A stretch of 64,000 nucleotides of DNA from the NCBI RefSeq assembly GCF_015207735.1, contig NZ_JADEWG010000002.1, forward strand, positions 1 through 64,000, written 5' to 3'. The notes below the pieces were generated by a model. That model made no database searches, was not told where the DNA came from, and saw only the letters and a list, made by a program, of their open reading frames with translations. The translations under genes and the position numbers were made by a program. The DNA comes from [Phormidium] sp. LEGE 05292. Its GTDB lineage: Bacteria; Cyanobacteriota; Cyanobacteriia; Cyanobacteriales; Aerosakkonemataceae. Position 1 is the stretch's first letter. Every line of letters starts with the position of its first letter. Below, one piece after another: positions 2,404 through 37,942 of the stretch.

Positions 2404-2410
2404 AAAGAAG

Positions 2411-2453
2411 AGGGGGGGAGTGGGTGAGTGGGTGAGTGGGTGAGGGGGTGAGG
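2411..2453 (+). repeat. Heptamer repeat, left arm of inverted pair (locus A)
   Basis: GTGAGTG-type heptamers (AGTGGGT GAGTGGGT and variants) run in tandem starting eight bases after the pilin gene stop. The reverse complement of this array is at 2934-2980, so the two arms enclose the S23 gene. Confidence 0.85.
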
Positions 2454-2496
2454 TTTGTGAAACGCTAATAACTGGCTTAATTTCCACCTTTGATTC

Positions 2497-2898
2497 TTAC
2501 TGCTGTTTTTTTTGTGTTGGTAGGAGCCACCTAGAAAAGTTAGTAATCATGTTAACTAATGTGCCTAGTATTCGGTTGTACTGCCGATAAAGTTCCCTAC
2601 CAACTTCGACATCTAAGTAGCCACATTTAACAGCAAATTCAATCCATGTTTGAGTTTCAGCAGCTTCTGCTTCCGCATCACTTAATTTGGATATAAAAGC
2701 ACCTTCATAACGCCTTTTACGCCATGCCTCTGATAAGTTTGCACAAACAGAACGTGATGACCGACGAATTTGATCAACCAACGAGTACCTTTCTTCAACG
2801 GGAAATTTCTTAGAAAGTTCAAAAATTTGCATAGCTACCTCAAAAGCAAGTTGGTAAACTTCCAAATCTCGATGAGATTGAATTTGTTTACGGCTCAT
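2497..2898 (-). CDS. Four-helix-bundle protein, S23/IVP family
   Basis: The 133-residue frame starts at ATG 2898, preceded by GGAGGG seven bases upstream; a longer frame to 2940 would read through the repeat arm and is not preferred. The sequence matches the four-helix-bundle family known from 23S rRNA intervening sequences (HRDLEVYQLAFEVA near the start, LVDQIRRSSRSVCANLSEAW in the middle, a WIEFA helix later). Members of this family resemble the Avd accessory protein of diversity-generating retroelements. The gene lies antisense between two T4SS genes and is bracketed by inverted heptamer arrays, so it looks inserted rather than part of the operon. Its function outside rRNA is unknown. Confidence 0.85.
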   Translation of the reverse strand: MSRKQIQSHRDLEVYQLAFEVAMQIFELSKKFPVEERYSLVDQIRRSSRSVCANLSEAWRKRRYEGAFISKLSDAEAEAAETQTWIEFAVKCGYLDVEVGRELYRQYNRILGTLVNMITNFSRWLLPTQKKQQ

Positions 2899-2933
2899 TT
2901 TAAACCCTCCTTTTTCCTTCCTTCTTTTATTAT

Positions 2934-2980
2934 CCCCCACTCACCCACTTACCCACTCACCCACTCACCCACTCTCCCCC
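2934..2980 (+). repeat. Heptamer repeat, right arm of inverted pair (locus A)
   Basis: CACCCACT-type heptamers are tandemly repeated here and are the reverse complement of the array at 2411-2453. The array ends eight bases before the virB4 start codon, leaving no room for a normal ribosome binding site of that gene. Confidence 0.85.
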
Positions 2981-2988
2981 TTAAAACT

Positions 2989-5900
2989 ATGCTCAAAGAC
3001 CCAGACAAAGACTTTGTAACTGTCAATAAAATCCTTGGAAAGCAAGCATCAATAGGCTTTATTCCAGCCGAACAACTCGTTCCTTGGATGGCTATCGCTA
3101 TTGTTTCATACATTCTCACTAACGGCTTTTTTAGCTTGGGAATGCCTTGGTTTTTCACTACTACGTTCTGGCTAATTATTAGTTGGTGGTTTTTGACAGG
3201 AAAAAAACCTCACCTGTTTGTAGATAAGTTCAGATTCCCACCCGGTAACGAATGGTACAACGGCAATCTATCATACTTACCCCCTGTACCAGAAAAACGA
3301 CCGCCTGCGCTTCGTACTCGCTTTAAAGATTCGCAAGTTCGCATCAAACTAAAACCCAAACTTGCGCCGAATCAACAAGGAGGTAATAGCAGACTTATGC
3401 CATTTCAGAACTACCAAAATCTTCTGTGTCTAGTGACCATCAAAAAAGATAATCGCGAAGTATCGGGTTATTTGCTTAACGAAGGCAGTCAATATCAAGT
3501 TGTATTTGGTTTCCAGACTCAAGGATTGCATAACCTCCTATATCGTCAGGAAGTTAGCAATGCAGCTACTGCTTTAGAAGAAGGATTAAAAGATATCCCT
3601 CCAGGTGAAAAGTTGGTATTCCATACAGGTTGCTATAGCAATGACAGTATTCGACAGCAACAACTAGACGAACAAGTTGAAAATTGCGATCTCAAACCAA
3701 TTTCAGTATTAATCAGAAACGAACAAAAGCGCGTTCAAGAATTAACGCTAACTGGCACCAGACAGGTGTGGAATCAAACTATTTTCTGTACTTGGACATT
3801 TAACGCGCAATCTGGTTCTAAATCCAACGACCCTTTGAGTAAGTTTATTGACGGCATTTTAAATACAGCTAGCAGTATCACTGCCCAGTTTACCGGAAAC
3901 GATCGCCTGAGTAAAGAACGCTTTTACAAGCAATTACTACTGCAATCTTTCGAGCAAGGTTACTTAAGTTGGGAAATCTTACTTAATACCAAAATCGGGC
4001 TAGAAATTCAACCGATGAATGCCGAGCAATTGTGGTCATACTTGTGGAAAAAATTCAACAATACACCTGCATCGCCTATTCCGCAATTACTCACTTTAGA
4101 AGAAACTGCATCCGACTACAAACTAACGGAAACTATCAACAGTTATAAACACGCTTGCACCATTTTAATTGAAGGTCAAAACGGTCGTTCCAGTTGTCCA
4201 GAACACAAACAAGATAAATCGCGCATCTGGCTAAATGGCAGAAATACGGAATGCGGCGTGCTGACAATGGAAGAAAGTCCCGGTGGTTGGATTAATACTA
4301 GAGAACAATTGAGATGGCTGTGGAAAGTGATGAGTTCCACTTACGTTCACGATACCGAAGCAGTTGTGGAAATTAGTACAGCTTCTAACTTTTTTATTCA
4401 AGACAATTTAGCTCGTCAAGCCAAACAATCTAAAACTGCTAGAAAACTTGCTTTGGAAAAAGGACAAGGGCGAGATGTCGGTGCTGAAGTTAAGCAGGAC
4501 GAATCTTTCGATGCTCAGAAAAAAATGTACAAAGGTGCGAAAGCACTGCACGCTGCGGTTGTGTTTTTAGTCTATCGACCAACTCCAGAACAACTCAATC
4601 AAGCTTGTCAAATGTTAACCAATAGTTTCGGTTCTGCCAAAGTAATTAGAGAGCGAAATATTGCTTGGTTAGTCGGGCTAGAAACTTTACCAATTACGCT
4701 CGGTTGGCTCTTGCACAGCAGTTCGCTCATTAACGAACGTCGCCTTACTTTTGATACAGAAACTGTTGCAGGTGTTTTACCTTTAACTGCGGTGAGAGAT
4801 CTCGATTCAATTGGTGTCGAATTTATCACTAAGGGCGGTAAGCCTGTCTGCATTGACCTCATGCACGAACAAACTAGCCGAGCTGTCATTACTGGGGAAA
4901 GCGGTAGCGGTAAATCAGTTTTGGGTTGGCGATTTGCTCTTGATGCTTTAGCTGCTAACATTCCTGTTGTTGGCATGGATATTTCTAGCGGTTCTGGTAG
5001 CACGTTTGAAACTGCTCTAGCACTTTTAGGCGATGATGGTGCGTACTACGACATTACCAAAGGTAGCTCTAATTTACTCGAAATTCCCGACCTGCGACGC
5101 TTTGATAAAGAGGAACGCTCCCGTCGGTTAGACCAGTGGAAAGAGTTTATTAGAAAATCCCTGACTATTATCAGTATGGGTAAAGTAAATGACCCTAAAT
5201 TAGCGCAGCGAGTTGACGCTATTCTGCTGCTGACTTTGAAAAAGTTTCTTGAAGACCCAGAAATAATCGAACGCTACAATGTTGCCTTTGAAAAAGGTTG
5301 GAAATCAAGCGAATGGCAAGAAATGCCAACCCTCAAACATTTGCTCAAATTCTGCACTAAGGAACAATTAAATCTACAAAACTTTACCGACCTCGATCGC
5401 ATTGCCATCAATCAGATTATTACTCAATGTAATGCCTTACTTGCTTCACCTTTAGGAAAAGCGATCGCTAGACCTTCTACCTTTTCCCCCGAACCTGCAA
5501 TTAAGTTTTTCGCTTTGAGCGGTTTGAGCAACGAACAAGACCAATATTTGATGGCAATGAACGCCCATGCTGCTTGTATCCGCAATGCCCTTTCACACCC
5601 GAAAAGTTTATTTATTGGCGACGAACTTTCGATTTTGTTCAAAAAAGATGGCTTTGCTGAAGTAGTAGGCGAACTTTGTGCGGTTGGACGAAAAAATGGC
5701 ATTTCAGTGTTACTGCTTTCCCAAGATATCGATAGCATCTGCGATTGCAGTGCAGGAACGATGATTCTCCAAAACATGGTTTACCGCATTACCGGGAGAT
5801 TAACATCTAATGCAGTTAATTCTTGGGTTAAGCGTTTGGGATACCCATCAGAAATTATCGGTCAAAATGCTACCGAAGCGTTTCTTCCAAAAGCCACTGA

Positions 5901-6189
5901 ACTCTGCTCAAATTGGCTGATTGAAAAAGGTGGTCGCTTTTGGCAAACGCAATTTTATCCAGGCGAAATGGTATTAGCGAGCGTAGCAAATAATCAAACA
6001 GAATTGATGGCTCGCGCTAGAGTGATGGCTCAATATCCCGATACCCTAAAAGGGCGATTGTTAGCCCTCAAACAGTTTACTTCTGAATACGTACAAGCCA
6101 TTAAAGAAGGTCGCTCTCTTGCCAATATTGGCAACAATTCTCTTTCCGATATTCAGCACAAACAACATCCCACTCGGATGGCTAGCTGA
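2989..6189 (+). CDS. virB4: VirB3-VirB4-like conjugation ATPase
   Basis: ATG 2989 is the first credible start; the open frame runs further up only through the repeat arm and antisense S23 gene. The 1066-residue product has an N-terminal hydrophobic block (about 30-80), as in proteins where VirB3 is fused to VirB4. The C-terminal half is a VirB4/TraC-type motor with Walker A GESGSGKS at 636-643 and Walker B LFIGDE with Asp878-Glu879, followed by a SQDID motif. It should energise pilus assembly and substrate transfer at the inner membrane. No Shine-Dalgarno lies before the start because a heptamer array abuts it, which may lower translation. Confidence 0.85.
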   Translation: MLKDPDKDFVTVNKILGKQASIGFIPAEQLVPWMAIAIVSYILTNGFFSLGMPWFFTTTFWLIISWWFLTGKKPHLFVDKFRFPPGNEWYNGNLSYLPPVPEKRPPALRTRFKDSQVRIKLKPKLAPNQQGGNSRLMPFQNYQNLLCLVTIKKDNREVSGYLLNEGSQYQVVFGFQTQGLHNLLYRQEVSNAATALEEGLKDIPPGEKLVFHTGCYSNDSIRQQQLDEQVENCDLKPISVLIRNEQKRVQELTLTGTRQVWNQTIFCTWTFNAQSGSKSNDPLSKFIDGILNTASSITAQFTGNDRLSKERFYKQLLLQSFEQGYLSWEILLNTKIGLEIQPMNAEQLWSYLWKKFNNTPASPIPQLLTLEETASDYKLTETINSYKHACTILIEGQNGRSSCPEHKQDKSRIWLNGRNTECGVLTMEESPGGWINTREQLRWLWKVMSSTYVHDTEAVVEISTASNFFIQDNLARQAKQSKTARKLALEKGQGRDVGAEVKQDESFDAQKKMYKGAKALHAAVVFLVYRPTPEQLNQACQMLTNSFGSAKVIRERNIAWLVGLETLPITLGWLLHSSSLINERRLTFDTETVAGVLPLTAVRDLDSIGVEFITKGGKPVCIDLMHEQTSRAVITGESGSGKSVLGWRFALDALAANIPVVGMDISSGSGSTFETALALLGDDGAYYDITKGSSNLLEIPDLRRFDKEERSRRLDQWKEFIRKSLTIISMGKVNDPKLAQRVDAILLLTLKKFLEDPEIIERYNVAFEKGWKSSEWQEMPTLKHLLKFCTKEQLNLQNFTDLDRIAINQIITQCNALLASPLGKAIARPSTFSPEPAIKFFALSGLSNEQDQYLMAMNAHAACIRNALSHPKSLFIGDELSILFKKDGFAEVVGELCAVGRKNGISVLLLSQDIDSICDCSAGTMILQNMVYRITGRLTSNAVNSWVKRLGYPSEIIGQNATEAFLPKATELCSNWLIEKGGRFWQTQFYPGEMVLASVANNQTELMARARVMAQYPDTLKGRLLALKQFTSEYVQAIKEGRSLANIGNNSLSDIQHKQHPTRMAS

Positions 6190-9055: not shown

Positions 9056-11056
9056 ATGAATCAACAAACTAATCCCGCAGATCCTAATTCCATCAATTCT
9101 TCAACTACAGATATTGAAAATAGCAAGCCAATTGATGCCGAGCAAAGTAACAGCCATCCAACCCAGACATCGAAAGTTGAATCTTCTGCTAATTCAACCC
9201 CTTCTTCTTCAGGAAATGATATCGACTTCAACGAATTTGCTGGTTTCAATCCTCATGTTTCACTAACACTTGAAGCTCAATACCAACTCGCTCAAGATGA
9301 AGAGAAACCCTTACCTCCTCCTGTTTCTGAAAGAGGTATTCCACGAATGGTAGCGATGCTCTTGTTAACTGGGGGAGTGATATTACTGGGGCTGGTAATT
9401 TGGGAGTTTGTTAAACCCAGATCGGCTATCAAACCGATCGCTCAAACCACACCCAAGGAAACTAAAGAATCTCCCATTAAAGATGAAAAGCCAGAACTGC
9501 TGGCTAGGTTAGCTTATGTTGACCAACAGAAACTCGTAGCACAAAACCCAAAGACTGAGAAACAACCCCAAACAGAACCGGAAGCCAAACCAACTCCTCC
9601 CCCGGTTGCGGAACGATCGACTCCACGCCCAGCGCCTGCTAAGAGTCCGACACCCCCTCCCAGAACCATTGTCCGAACCGTCACCGTTCCTGCACCACCC
9701 CCACCGCCCAAGACTATTGTGCGAACGGTCACCGTTCCAGGGCCACCTCCGCCGCCGAAGGTTATTGTGCGAACTGTTACTGTTCCTGCGCCAGCCCCTA
9801 AACCCGCACCTGTTTCCACCCCCGAACTTACCCCCAAACCGATAGCAACTCCAGCGCCTACTACCGAAAAAGTTGACCCTTTCGAGCGCTGGAACCAGCT
9901 GGCGCAGTTGGGTCAAACCAGGGGAAACGTTGAAAACGATTCTTCTGTTGGACTCCAAAATGCTTCAACACCGACTGGCGCAGACACTCCTGGTTCTGAA
10001 CCACCGTTAATCTCTGAAATTCAGGTATCCTCAAAACCAACTGGTAAAGAACAAGCCTCGAACAGCATACTTACAAACAATACAGCGGTTCCCGTTACCG
10101 TTGACGATCGCCTGCCATCAGACACAGCTATACAATCGCGTCTTGGCGGCTCACAAGCAGAACTCAGTGCTGCGCGAGTGGCTCCACAGTCATCTATAAG
10201 TAGACTGGGACATATCGCAGATGAATCTGCCTCGTCTGGCTCTTTACCAACTTCTAGCGATCGCACTTCCGAATTTTTGACAGTTGCGATCGGCAATTCA
10301 CCACAAAACAAACAACCCGCACGCAACAATCTCTCACCAGGCGCGATCGGGATTCTGACTCGAACGCCCCAATCTTCAAAACCAACGGAAACGGCACAAG
10401 TAGCACTCGGAACTACAGCCTCTGGGACAGTATCCGTTCCCCTGCTGTGGGATGAAGATAGCCAGGAGCAGCTTTATAACCGATTTGCCATTACCTTAAC
10501 TGAAGACATTCTAGCGACAGACGGCTCAGCAGTATTAAAAGCTGGGACGGTCATTATTGCTAAAGCCAATCGGGTCGGTAAAGAAAACCGGATGGTACAA
10601 GCGAGTGCGATCGCAGCTGTATATACCGATGAATCGGGACAAGTCAAACAGCAAGAAATTCCTAATGGTGTAATGCAGATTGCAGGTGAAGATGGAGAAC
10701 CGTTGATTGCTAAAGGTTATCTCGATCCTGGTGATGATATTGCCAAACAAGATCTTCTGATTGCTCTGCTGTCTGGAGCGGGACGAGTCGGAGAAGTTTT
10801 AACCTCACCCAGAGTCAGAAGTCGCAGCAGTATTAGCAGCGGCGGGTTTTCCTCTGACACCATTACTGTAGAAAGCCGAGACCCTCAAATTTGGTCTGCC
10901 GTCCTCGATGGCTTTTTTACCCCTCTAGCCAAACGACTTGAAAAACGCTCCGATAAAGCGGTCGAAGAACTTTTAAATCGCCCCAATATTGCAATGCTTC
11001 CGAAAGGAACTAAGGTTTCGCTCGTTCTCAATAGTTTTCTCAACGTTAATCCATAA
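9056..11056 (+). CDS. virB10: VirB10/TrbI-like channel protein with Pro-rich linker
   Basis: The 666-residue product has a cytoplasmic N-terminus of about 97 residues, one membrane segment (98-119), a long Pro-rich periplasmic linker and a C-terminal VirB10-type domain (about 455-666). The linker carries three near-identical copies of IVRTVTVP separated by Pro runs (about 200-250). The C-terminal domain holds VPLLWDE, then 'FAITLTEDILATDGSAVLKAG', shortened here to its recognisable core LTEDI...LKAGT, the beta-barrel part of VirB10/TrbI. The protein should span both membranes and couple ATPase state to the outer-membrane pore. It comes before the VirB9-like gene, the reverse of the usual order. 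Confidence 0.8.
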   Translation: MNQQTNPADPNSINSSTTDIENSKPIDAEQSNSHPTQTSKVESSANSTPSSSGNDIDFNEFAGFNPHVSLTLEAQYQLAQDEEKPLPPPVSERGIPRMVAMLLLTGGVILLGLVIWEFVKPRSAIKPIAQTTPKETKESPIKDEKPELLARLAYVDQQKLVAQNPKTEKQPQTEPEAKPTPPPVAERSTPRPAPAKSPTPPPRTIVRTVTVPAPPPPPKTIVRTVTVPGPPPPPKVIVRTVTVPAPAPKPAPVSTPELTPKPIATPAPTTEKVDPFERWNQLAQLGQTRGNVENDSSVGLQNASTPTGADTPGSEPPLISEIQVSSKPTGKEQASNSILTNNTAVPVTVDDRLPSDTAIQSRLGGSQAELSAARVAPQSSISRLGHIADESASSGSLPTSSDRTSEFLTVAIGNSPQNKQPARNNLSPGAIGILTRTPQSSKPTETAQVALGTTASGTVSVPLLWDEDSQEQLYNRFAITLTEDILATDGSAVLKAGTVIIAKANRVGKENRMVQASAIAAVYTDESGQVKQQEIPNGVMQIAGEDGEPLIAKGYLDPGDDIAKQDLLIALLSGAGRVGEVLTSPRVRSRSSISSGGFSSDTITVESRDPQIWSAVLDGFFTPLAKRLEKRSDKAVEELLNRPNIAMLPKGTKVSLVLNSFLNVNP

Positions 11057-34952: not shown

Positions 34953-35058
34953 TGGTAGTAGGTAGTGGGTAGTAGGTAGTAGGTAATAGGTAAGAGATAA
35001 TAAGTAACAGGTAATATATAATAATCAATCTTTCTCACTACCTACTACCCACTACCCA
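34953..35058 (+). repeat. Heptamer inverted repeat (locus B)
   Basis: The left arm (34953 to about 35014) is GGTAGTA/GGTAGTG in tandem, decaying into GGTAATA variants. The right arm (35036-35058) is its reverse complement (CACTACCTACTACCCACTAC). The unit lies exactly between the FtsK-like gene and the small membrane gene upstream. The left arm starts five bases before the FtsK-like start codon, where it replaces a ribosome binding site. Confidence 0.85.
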
Positions 35059-35793: not shown

Positions 35794-35822
35794 TTAGTTA
35801 GAACCCCTGCAAAAATTGATTC

Positions 35823-35952
35823 GTCATTAGTCATTAGTCATTAGTTATTGGTCATTGGTCATTGGTCAAAAGCTATTGATACGCATCGTTTTATTTAAAT
35901 TCCAAAGAACTCAAATAATTACTAATAACCAATGACTAATGACCAATGACTA
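35823..35952 (+). repeat. Heptamer inverted repeat (locus C)
   Basis: Left arm 35823-35868 is GTCATTA/GTCATTG in tandem; right arm 35920-35951 is the reverse complement (ACTAATAACCAATGACTAAT). About 50 bases of AT-rich sequence lie between. The right arm runs into the stop codon of the coiled-coil gene, so its last codons may derive from the repeat. Confidence 0.85.
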
Positions 35953-36315
35953 AATTCCCGAAGAAGCCAAACACTTTTTGAAGTTAAAAATTGCCGTTTG
36001 AGTCTGCTTTAACTCTTTAGTAATTTGAGCATTTTGAGTTTGCAGCAATTTGTTCTGTGCTTGCAAGGTTTGGTTCTGCTTATTCATCAAAGAGATTTGA
36101 TTCGCCATCATCTGCAAACCCAAACAGAAACCAAATCCTAAAATTACTAGCAATCCCAACACCAAAAAGATAGGTTTGGCATTAGTATTACTCGGACTGA
36201 TGTTAGTAGCAATTGGCGTGGAAGTGCAGTCGCAAGGTACGAAAGCTTCCGAACGTAGCAACACTCCCGGATACAAAGCAGTAGCCTGTATTCTTTGAAA
36301 TTCATCTTGTTCCAT
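35950..36315 (-). CDS. Single-pass membrane protein with coiled coil
   Basis: The 121-residue product has a membrane segment at about 48-70 and a Gln-rich coiled coil with repeats of QNQ/QLQT type (NKQNQTLQAQNKLLQTQNAQ) at about 77-105. The gene overlaps the one upstream by 14 bases, indicating one transcript. Function is unknown. Confidence 0.6.
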   Translation of the reverse strand: MEQDEFQRIQATALYPGVLLRSEAFVPCDCTSTPIATNISPSNTNAKPIFLVLGLLVILGFGFCLGLQMMANQISLMNKQNQTLQAQNKLLQTQNAQITKELKQTQTAIFNFKKCLASSGI

Positions 36316-37763: not shown

Positions 37764-37942
37764 AATTCAAAATGCAAAATTCAAAATTTAAAAAAAAGAA
37801 ATTATTTTGAATTGTTTAATTAAGGATACAAGCCCCGGTTTAAAAACATGGAAAAGGAAAAAGCGCTCTTCAACATTATTCAAGCCCCTGGCTTTAAATT
37901 GATGGTCTTAATTTTGAATTTTGAATTTTGAATTTTGAATTA
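37764..37942 (+). repeat. Heptamer inverted repeat (locus D)
   Basis: Left arm 37764-37790 is AATTCAA/AATGCAA-type; right arm 37908-37942 is its inverse (TTTTGAATTTTGAATT). Between the arms are two near-copies of CAAGCCCC(T)GG with TTTA, about 75 bases apart. The right arm abuts the stop of the small gene at 37943. Confidence 0.8.

What the first reader, a model, noticed from the sequence alone, without database searches (positions are those of the whole stretch)
2411..2980. S23 four-helix-bundle gene framed by inverted heptamer arrays inside a T4SS operon
The S23/IVP gene is antisense and lies exactly between the pilin-like gene and virB4, with tandem heptamers on both sides in opposite orientation. 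S23 proteins are known from 23S rRNA intervening sequences and are related to the Avd protein of diversity-generating retroelements. The arrangement looks like a mobile unit whose ends are the heptamer arrays and whose only gene is S23. The insert also removes the normal ribosome binding site of virB4.
Basis: partly seen in the sequence, partly recalled or inferred. Interest (0 to 1): 0.72.

Follow-up and report, generated by a model that had tools for sequence, protein, structure and literature searches.

The report
Mobile S23 gene between inverted repeats
A small gene of unknown function (S23) sits between two mirror-image arrays of short repeats inside a plasmid transfer operon, and comparison with relatives indicates that gene and arrays form one mobile unit found in several groups of bacteria, which may help explain where similar insertions in ribosomal RNA come from.

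Summary
The antisense S23 gene and the inverted arrays are real; the unit is an octamer (GAGTGGGT), not a heptamer. The anatomy is general: 73 of 86 independent S23 loci with readable flanks have inverted arms, against 14 of 319 ORFs of a control stretch. In loci labelled as other phyla it is 11 of 15 against 2 of 58. The array unit follows the S23 subfamily rather than the host genome (Mantel r 0.63, 0 of 2000 permutations).

Gene and arrays come and go together. S23-less copies of one insertion site hold no array. One site in 94-98% identical genomes carries two unrelated S23/array cassettes. One unit is inverted between two Nostoc. Some copies ride in transposons: ten identical ISL3-family copies with 8-bp duplications, and a MITE-like copy with an empty site.

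The window copy is old, shared with relatives and decayed or lost in others. S23 is under purifying selection. How array-only units move is unknown; they show no excess of target duplications. Proposed: S23 binds its own hairpin arrays; other enzymes move the unit.

The parts
2410..2983 (.). whole unit: left array, antisense S23 gene, right array (574 bp)
   Evidence: absent as a block in pOSC7112.01
2410..2452 (+). left octamer array, unit GAGTGGGT, about 5.4 copies
   Evidence: TRF
2497..2898 (-). S23 (four helix bundle, 23S rRNA IVP family) gene, 133 aa, with AGGAGG just upstream of its ATG
   Evidence: PF05635 107.3 bits; TIGR02436 97.7 bits; dN/dS 0.16 against the G006 copy; sequence
2936..2983 (-). 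right octamer array, inverted copy of the left unit (CCCACTCA on the + strand)
   Evidence: TRF; inverted arm score 69
   Evidence: no Pfam or NCBIfam hit
2989..6189 (+). VirB4/TraC-like ATPase gene, right neighbour of the insertion
   Evidence: hits below the curated cut-offs; conserved in cyanobacterial plasmids

Best explanation
The block is one copy of a mobile cassette: an S23 gene together with its own pair of inverted tandem arrays. Shown by comparison: gene and arms are present or absent together, are exchanged together at one site, and can be inverted together; the array unit goes with the S23 subfamily, not with the host; the protein is kept by purifying selection; some cassettes travel inside transposons (an ISL3-family IS, a MITE-like element). 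Inferred: the S23 protein, a relative of the solved protein 2GSC, binds the hairpin formed by its own arrays in single-stranded DNA or RNA and so protects or presents the cassette. No catalytic domain was recognised in it, so strand transfer would be done by enzymes in trans: IS transposases where terminal repeats surround the cassette, and recombination or template switching between arrays elsewhere. The window copy inserted before the window organism, G006 and PCC 7112 pOSC7112.02 diverged.
For: Association: 73 of 86 independent loci against 14 of 319 ORFs, and 11 of 15 (9 of 11 flank groups) against 2 of 58 in loci labelled non-cyanobacterial. Unit follows subfamily: Mantel r 0.63 over 70 loci, 0 of 2000 permutations; same subfamily in different genomes 0.43 (84 pairs) against different subfamily in the same genome 0.15 (20 pairs), p 3e-5. 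Plasmid repeat 535-543 bases with S23 and 72-73 without, no array in the short copies. L089 against L094: flanks 97.6% and 96.7% identical, S23 33% identical, different arms. L046 against L054: unit 95.9% identical but inverted relative to the flanks. L042 against the empty site in G264. Ten identical ISL3 copies with S23 in G375. dN/dS 0.26 or less in 58 of 60 pairs. Window site: shared with G006 and pOSC7112.02, S23 fragment in G122, none in pOSC7112.01.
Against: Array-only units show no excess of target-site duplications (1 of 81 with 8 or more shared bases, 0.7 expected). At the L046 site and at the CP-ATPgrasp site, S23-less relatives do hold arrays, so arrays can exist at a site without S23. 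23 of 24 inverted array places in 400 kb of G168 have no S23 trace. 13 of 86 independent loci have no arms by this measure. Binding of S23 to arrays was not tested; the unit/subfamily correlation could be common descent alone. In pOSC7112.02 the array next to the S23 stop is in direct orientation and the inverted one lies about 300 bases further.
Confidence: 0.6

Rival explanations
1. The arrays are pre-existing hairpin hot spots and S23 genes (or S23-bearing elements) merely insert into them or are tolerated there.
For: Inverted arrays without S23 are common (26 rows in 400 kb of G168). At the L046 site G387 and G358 have arrays but no S23; at the CP-ATPgrasp site G009 has an S23-less hairpin.
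Against: S23-less plasmid copies have no array. Different cassettes at one site bring different arms. Units follow the S23 subfamily across genomes. The window octamer is nearly absent elsewhere in its genome.
Confidence: 0.18
2. S23 is only a passenger of ordinary transposons (ISL3 and MITE-type elements); the arms are a part of those transposons, and array-only units are worn-down remains of them.
For: ISL3 elements with S23 and arrays; L042-type terminal repeats shared with a MITE family.
Against: No ISL3 transposase match near most S23 loci (17 of the loci held then gave one). The 14 distant S23-less ISL3 elements with terminal repeats have no arrays (but they are another clade). S23 subfamilies with and without transposase share the arm layout. 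In G387 S23 is 96.6% identical to that of G375 while the transposase is only about 62% identical.
Confidence: 0.15
3. S23/array units are RNA-level elements like ribosomal intervening sequences, copied by a reverse transcriptase in trans, with S23 acting like Avd.
For: Long predicted RNA stem; weak Avd similarity (PF22296 E 4e-4, NF033474 21.7 bits against a cut-off of 80); S23p in rRNA IVSs (PMC4990558, passages).
Against: Avd cut-offs not reached. No reverse transcriptase was looked for here. The transposon-borne copies move as DNA.
Confidence: 0.05
4. An ordinary host gene with strong hairpins for regulation or termination, not a mobile unit.
For: Purifying selection; 5' arm rich in G in 70 of 73 loci, next to the start codon.
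Against: Presence/absence, exchange and inversion of whole units. S23-less hairpins show the same polarity, G>C in 18 of 22.
Confidence: 0.02

Closest known systems
23S rRNA intervening sequences with an S23p ORF, e.g. in Coxiella burnetii (PMC4990558: abstract, Introduction, section 15 and found passages seen)
   Same: S23 ORF in the loop of a stem made by complementary ends; similar size (428 nt against 574 bp here); that paper reports tandem heptamers (GACAGAT) just before the S23p start codon; a mobile origin had been proposed by authors it cites.
   Different: Ours lies between plasmid transfer genes, not in rRNA; arms are long tandem arrays on both sides; S23 here has AGGAGG and is under purifying selection, whereas the Coxiella S23p is said to be decaying and probably not made.
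ISL3-family insertion sequences (PF01610, NF033550)
   Same: Some carry the S23 gene with inverted arrays just inside their terminal repeats.
   Different: The window unit has no transposase; no terminal repeat was recognised outside its arrays.
Avd / diversity-generating retroelements
   Same: Avd is a distant sequence relative.
   Different: Avd cut-offs are not reached; no template or variable repeat was looked for.
MITEs and REPIN/RAYT systems (REPINs: PMC3116915, search listing only)
   Same: Small inverted-repeat units without their own transposase; possible footprints of a coding partner (resemblance recalled).
   Different: The coding partner here is S23, which matched only PF05635 and bAvd in Pfam, not a transposase family.
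Heptamer tandem repeats of cyanobacteria and others (PMC4679880, PMC4692102: found passages seen)
   Same: Same kind of intergenic 7-mer arrays, sometimes inverted; PMC4679880 suspects horizontal spread without an evident mechanism.
   Different: No S23 in the terms I searched there ('four helix' 0 in both, 'S23' 0 in PMC4679880); PMC4692102 says its repeats are generally not associated with mobile elements.

Membership tests
S23 protein family (PF05635 / TIGR02436) | profile score above the curated cut-off | tested here: met
   107.3 bits against 33.8; 97.7 against 24
23S rRNA intervening sequence | located inside an rRNA gene | tested here: not met
   lies between two operon genes; no rRNA match in L001 or in 12 other S23 loci at gathering scores
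23S rRNA intervening sequence | complementary ends that form a stem around the ORF | tested here: met
23S rRNA intervening sequence | RNase III excision of the RNA | not testable with these tools
   needs RNA work
diversity-generating retroelement Avd | Avd equivalog score | tested here: not met
   21.7 bits against a cut-off of 80; bAvd 21.3 against 40
diversity-generating retroelement | reverse transcriptase and template/variable repeats nearby | not tested
   no search made
ISL3-family IS with S23 passenger | ISL3 transposase beside S23 at the window site | tested here: not met
   no transposase match in L001; met at G375
MITE or other DNA transposon | terminal inverted repeats with target-site duplication | tested here: not met
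   no excess of duplications over 81 array-flanked loci (arm edges estimated); met for L042
REPIN/RAYT | Y1 transposase as coding partner | tested here: not met
   Pfam finds only PF05635 and bAvd in the protein

The most novel reading that the evidence does not exclude
S23/array cassettes are a distinct class of mobile element spread over several phyla, in which a non-catalytic four-helix-bundle protein is matched to its own inverted microsatellite arrays (period 7 or 8-9 by subfamily). The S23 insertions in 23S rRNA are members that landed in rRNA hairpins, and many heptamer hairpins of cyanobacteria are S23-less footprints of the same class.
Probability: 0.3. Interest if true: 0.9.

Novelty: new variant of a known kind. 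Interest (0 to 1): 0.76.

Why it matters
S23 proteins are known from ribosomal intervening sequences, but no function is known for them (PMC4990558, Introduction). Finding that free-standing S23 genes sit inside inverted tandem arrays, and that gene and arrays come and go together, gives the family a common anatomy. It makes two open questions directly testable: where rRNA intervening sequences come from, and how heptamer repeats spread between genomes.

Tried and rejected
Target-site duplications for all array-flanked units: no excess, so a uniform cut-and-paste model was dropped. Of the L042 group, L042, L055 and L021 show 8-9 base direct repeats at their ends, while L036 and L025 show no exact one and L070 is truncated. 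Derivation of all S23-less hairpins from S23 units: not borne out as a general claim; at the window site the G122 remnant is supported by a protein match (34 aa, E 2e-8), the G001 remnant only by a DNA alignment (no protein match). Arm polarity as an S23-specific signal: rejected. The flank of L217 as an empty-site probe failed because it matches a repeated gene. No structure prediction was run. Literature searches found no paper linking S23 to inverted arrays; the library is open-licence PubMed Central only, and searches listed 40 of 258, 15 of 60 and 15 of 1,198. Elhai et al. 2008 on small mobile repeats is not held; its content is recalled only.

Rows dropped and biases: 7 of 149 S23 loci lacked flanks. 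Identical ISL3 copies (L209, L216, L224-L232), a duplicate (L233) and L242 were left out of the counts. L097 gave a false score from runs of N and was trimmed at the N run. The best-scoring member stands for each flank group; a random member gives 67-73 of 86, mean 70.6. Grouping by flank also merged some unrelated loci through repeated genes. The S23 set is not random: 80 loci are the best-matching relatives of the window protein (136 were found). The 319 control ORFs include the one S23 gene of that stretch, which scores below 28 because its ORF runs into the arrays. Non-cyanobacterial labels are record titles, mostly of metagenome bins; L075 (same as L074) and L047 were left out; L074 scores exactly 28.

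Full report
OBSERVATION. Between an upstream ORF ending at 2403 and a VirB4/TraC-like ORF starting at 2989 lies an antisense S23 gene (ATG at 2898, stop at 2497, 133 aa). Tandem arrays lie at 2410-2452 and 2936-2983. They are octamers (GAGTGGGT and its reverse complement), not heptamers. A 15-mer of the unit with up to one mismatch matches 7 times in the draft genome (7.5 Mb, 351 contigs), all in these arrays. The tool's reversed control, which is a rotation of the same octamer, matches 9 times, 8 of them here. The S23 strand with its arms folds into a long stem (-194 kcal/mol, z -5.9, 0 of 100 shuffles as good). AGGAGG stands just before the S23 start. The protein matches PF05635 at 107 bits and the solved proteins 2GSC and 2RLD (E 9e-10 and 2e-7).

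THE WINDOW SITE IN RELATIVES. G006 (VirB4 97% identical) has the same unit in the same place. G122 (73%) keeps an S23 fragment (34 aa, E 2e-8). G001 (96%) keeps the left array and a short stretch that aligns with S23 DNA, but no protein match. Oscillatoria nigro-viridis PCC 7112 carries an S23 (82.7% identical over 133 aa) at the same place on conjugative plasmid pOSC7112.02 (VirB4 83%). Its arrays have period 8 too, unit GAGTGGGA upstream of S23. The array next to the S23 stop is in direct orientation, and the inverted one lies about 300 bases beyond the stop. Its second plasmid pOSC7112.01 (VirB4 64%) has 16 bases between the two genes, with GGAG before virB4. No S23 match at E 0.01 was found in L118-L125, L378 or L379. 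So the insertion is old and not a fixed part of the operon.

GENERALITY. In the first set, 91 of 106 S23 loci with both flanks had inverted arms (score 28 or more; one of the 91, L097, is a false score from N runs), against 9 of 367 other ORFs of the same loci; direct repeats scored that high in 11 of 106. In the enlarged set it was 115 of 142 inverted and 13 of 142 direct; after grouping by flank homology, 73 of 86, or 67-73 with a random member per group. In 400 kb of one Nostocaceae genome (G168), 14 of 319 ORFs scored as high, and 4 of 63 small ORFs with free flanks. For 15 loci with non-cyanobacterial record titles (Verrucomicrobia, Acidobacteria, Chloroflexi, Planctomycetota, Bacteroidota and others, mostly metagenome bins) it was 11 of 15, or 9 of 11 flank groups, against 2 of 58 ORFs. 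In the G168 stretch 26 rows of inverted array pairs were found. Of 24 distinct places, one holds the only strong S23 match, whose ends run into the arrays; 23 hold none at E 0.01, and two weak S23 matches lie outside any pair.

ARMS GO WITH THE GENE. Over 70 loci with arms, protein identity and arm similarity correlate (Mantel r 0.63, 0 of 2000 permutations). Among loci with a genome handle, arms of one subfamily in different genomes are more alike (mean 0.43, 84 pairs) than arms of different subfamilies in one genome (0.15, 20 pairs; p 3e-5). In the window subfamily 30 of 34 arms with a clear period have 8 or 9; in the other subfamilies 22 of 22 have 7; 14 arms had no clear period. This can be read as gene and arms descending together as one unit. 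It does not prove binding.

PRESENCE, ABSENCE, EXCHANGE, INVERSION. (1) A sequence repeated on Nostoc plasmids measures 543 and 535 bases between two anchors where S23 is present (L367, L019) and 72, 72 and 73 where it is absent (L373, L374, L375). The short copies hold no array. They are homologous copies on different plasmids, not strict orthologues, and some bases differ at the join. (2) At one site (between genes I would call CP-ATPgrasp and alpha-E; names recalled, from no call), G004 and G005/G003 have flanks 94-98% identical. Yet G004 carries an S23 with GGGGCTA arms, and G005/G003 one with GGTCAGT arms; the G004 and G005 proteins (L089/L094) are 33% identical. The alignments break at the cassette borders. 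Elsewhere the site has a plain spacer (G139) or an S23-less hairpin (G009). (3) L046 and L054 (Nostoc favosum, N. flagelliforme) share a site, but the 512-bp unit, 95.9% identical, is inverted relative to flanks 91-95% identical. At that site G387 and G168 hold other repeats and no S23, and G150 and G196 about 30 bases. (4) L042 has terminal repeats and ATCGCAAC on both sides; the same place in G264 (96% identical flanks) is empty with one diverged copy (5 of 8 bases the same).

TRANSPOSON-BORNE COPIES. G375 has ten copies of a 2.3-kb ISL3-family element with transposase and S23, identical over 2271-2318 bases. Of the 9 copies read at both ends, 7 have exact 8-bp duplications and 2 have one mismatch; the tenth has a displaced right end. 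Heptamer arrays lie just inside both terminal repeats. G387 has two more such elements; in one the transposase is about 62% identical to that of G375 but S23 96.6%. Five distinct S23-carrying ISL3 elements with both ends readable have these arrays. Three further S23-positive rows (L316, L319, L339) gave no such repeat, and two were cut at an edge. The 14 distant S23-less ISL3 elements with terminal repeats have none, but they are another clade. The L042-type terminal repeat is shared with a MITE family: six copies with both ends in hand have 8-9 bp duplications, and three of the six hold inverted arrays without S23.

SELECTION. Of 60 S23 pairs within flank groups that met the listing criteria, 58 have dN/dS of 0.26 or less (window against G006: 0.16). 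The two others, 0.70 and 0.80, rest on few changes; the pairs are not independent.

MECHANISM. Shown: gene and arms behave as one cassette and can be carried by transposons. Not shown: how array-only units move; as a group they lack target duplications. My preferred reading is that S23 recognises the hairpin of its own arrays, and that enzymes in trans, or recombination between arrays, move the unit. A route through RNA and a reverse transcriptase was not tested.

RELATION TO WHAT IS KNOWN. The nearest known thing is the ribosomal intervening sequence with S23p. The Coxiella paper (PMC4990558; abstract, Introduction, section 15 and found passages) describes a 428-nt element with S23p in the loop of a stem, tandem heptamers just before its start codon, excision by RNase III, and earlier proposals of a transposition origin. 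By location the window unit is not such an element; by anatomy it resembles one. Two papers on heptamer repeats (PMC4679880, PMC4692102; found passages) do not mention four helix proteins; the first suspects horizontal spread. An Arthrospira paper lists two four helix bundle genes among 24 strain-unique genes (PMC8700078, passages), which fits mobility.

Noticed in passing
window 34954-35058, 35819-35953, 37764-37941: Three further inverted heptamer-array pairs between genes without an S23 gene (the first pair seen by eye only). The third has the AATTCAA unit also found around the S23 gene L003 of the same genome.
   Followed up: partly
window 9668-9798: A 48-base tandem repeat (2.7 copies) inside the ORF 9056-11056 of the transfer operon.
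   Followed up: no
L003 (own genome, G000:C337): This S23 unit lies between an N-terminal and an apparent C-terminal piece of an ISL3-type transposase gene.
   Followed up: partly
L301 and L095 (both genome G009): An S23-less hairpin at the CP-ATPgrasp/alpha-E site uses a GCTAAT(T/G)G-type unit like the arms of that genome's S23 gene L095.
   Followed up: no
L143, L144 (G387, G168): At the L046 site these genomes carry arrays of a longer tandem repeat (TTAACGGAGTTCAAAGG-type) in place of S23.
   Followed up: no
L243-L272 and listed places: An abundant MITE family of Nostoc with ends GGGAGCAACGCGAAAAAGTGAGAT; in G297 and G294 two ends stand about 1.93 kb apart, a possible full IS.
   Followed up: partly
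L198 (G297): Arms of this S23 gene contain the heptamer TCAGTTA, the reverse complement of the TAACTGA repeats described in PMC4679880.
   Followed up: no
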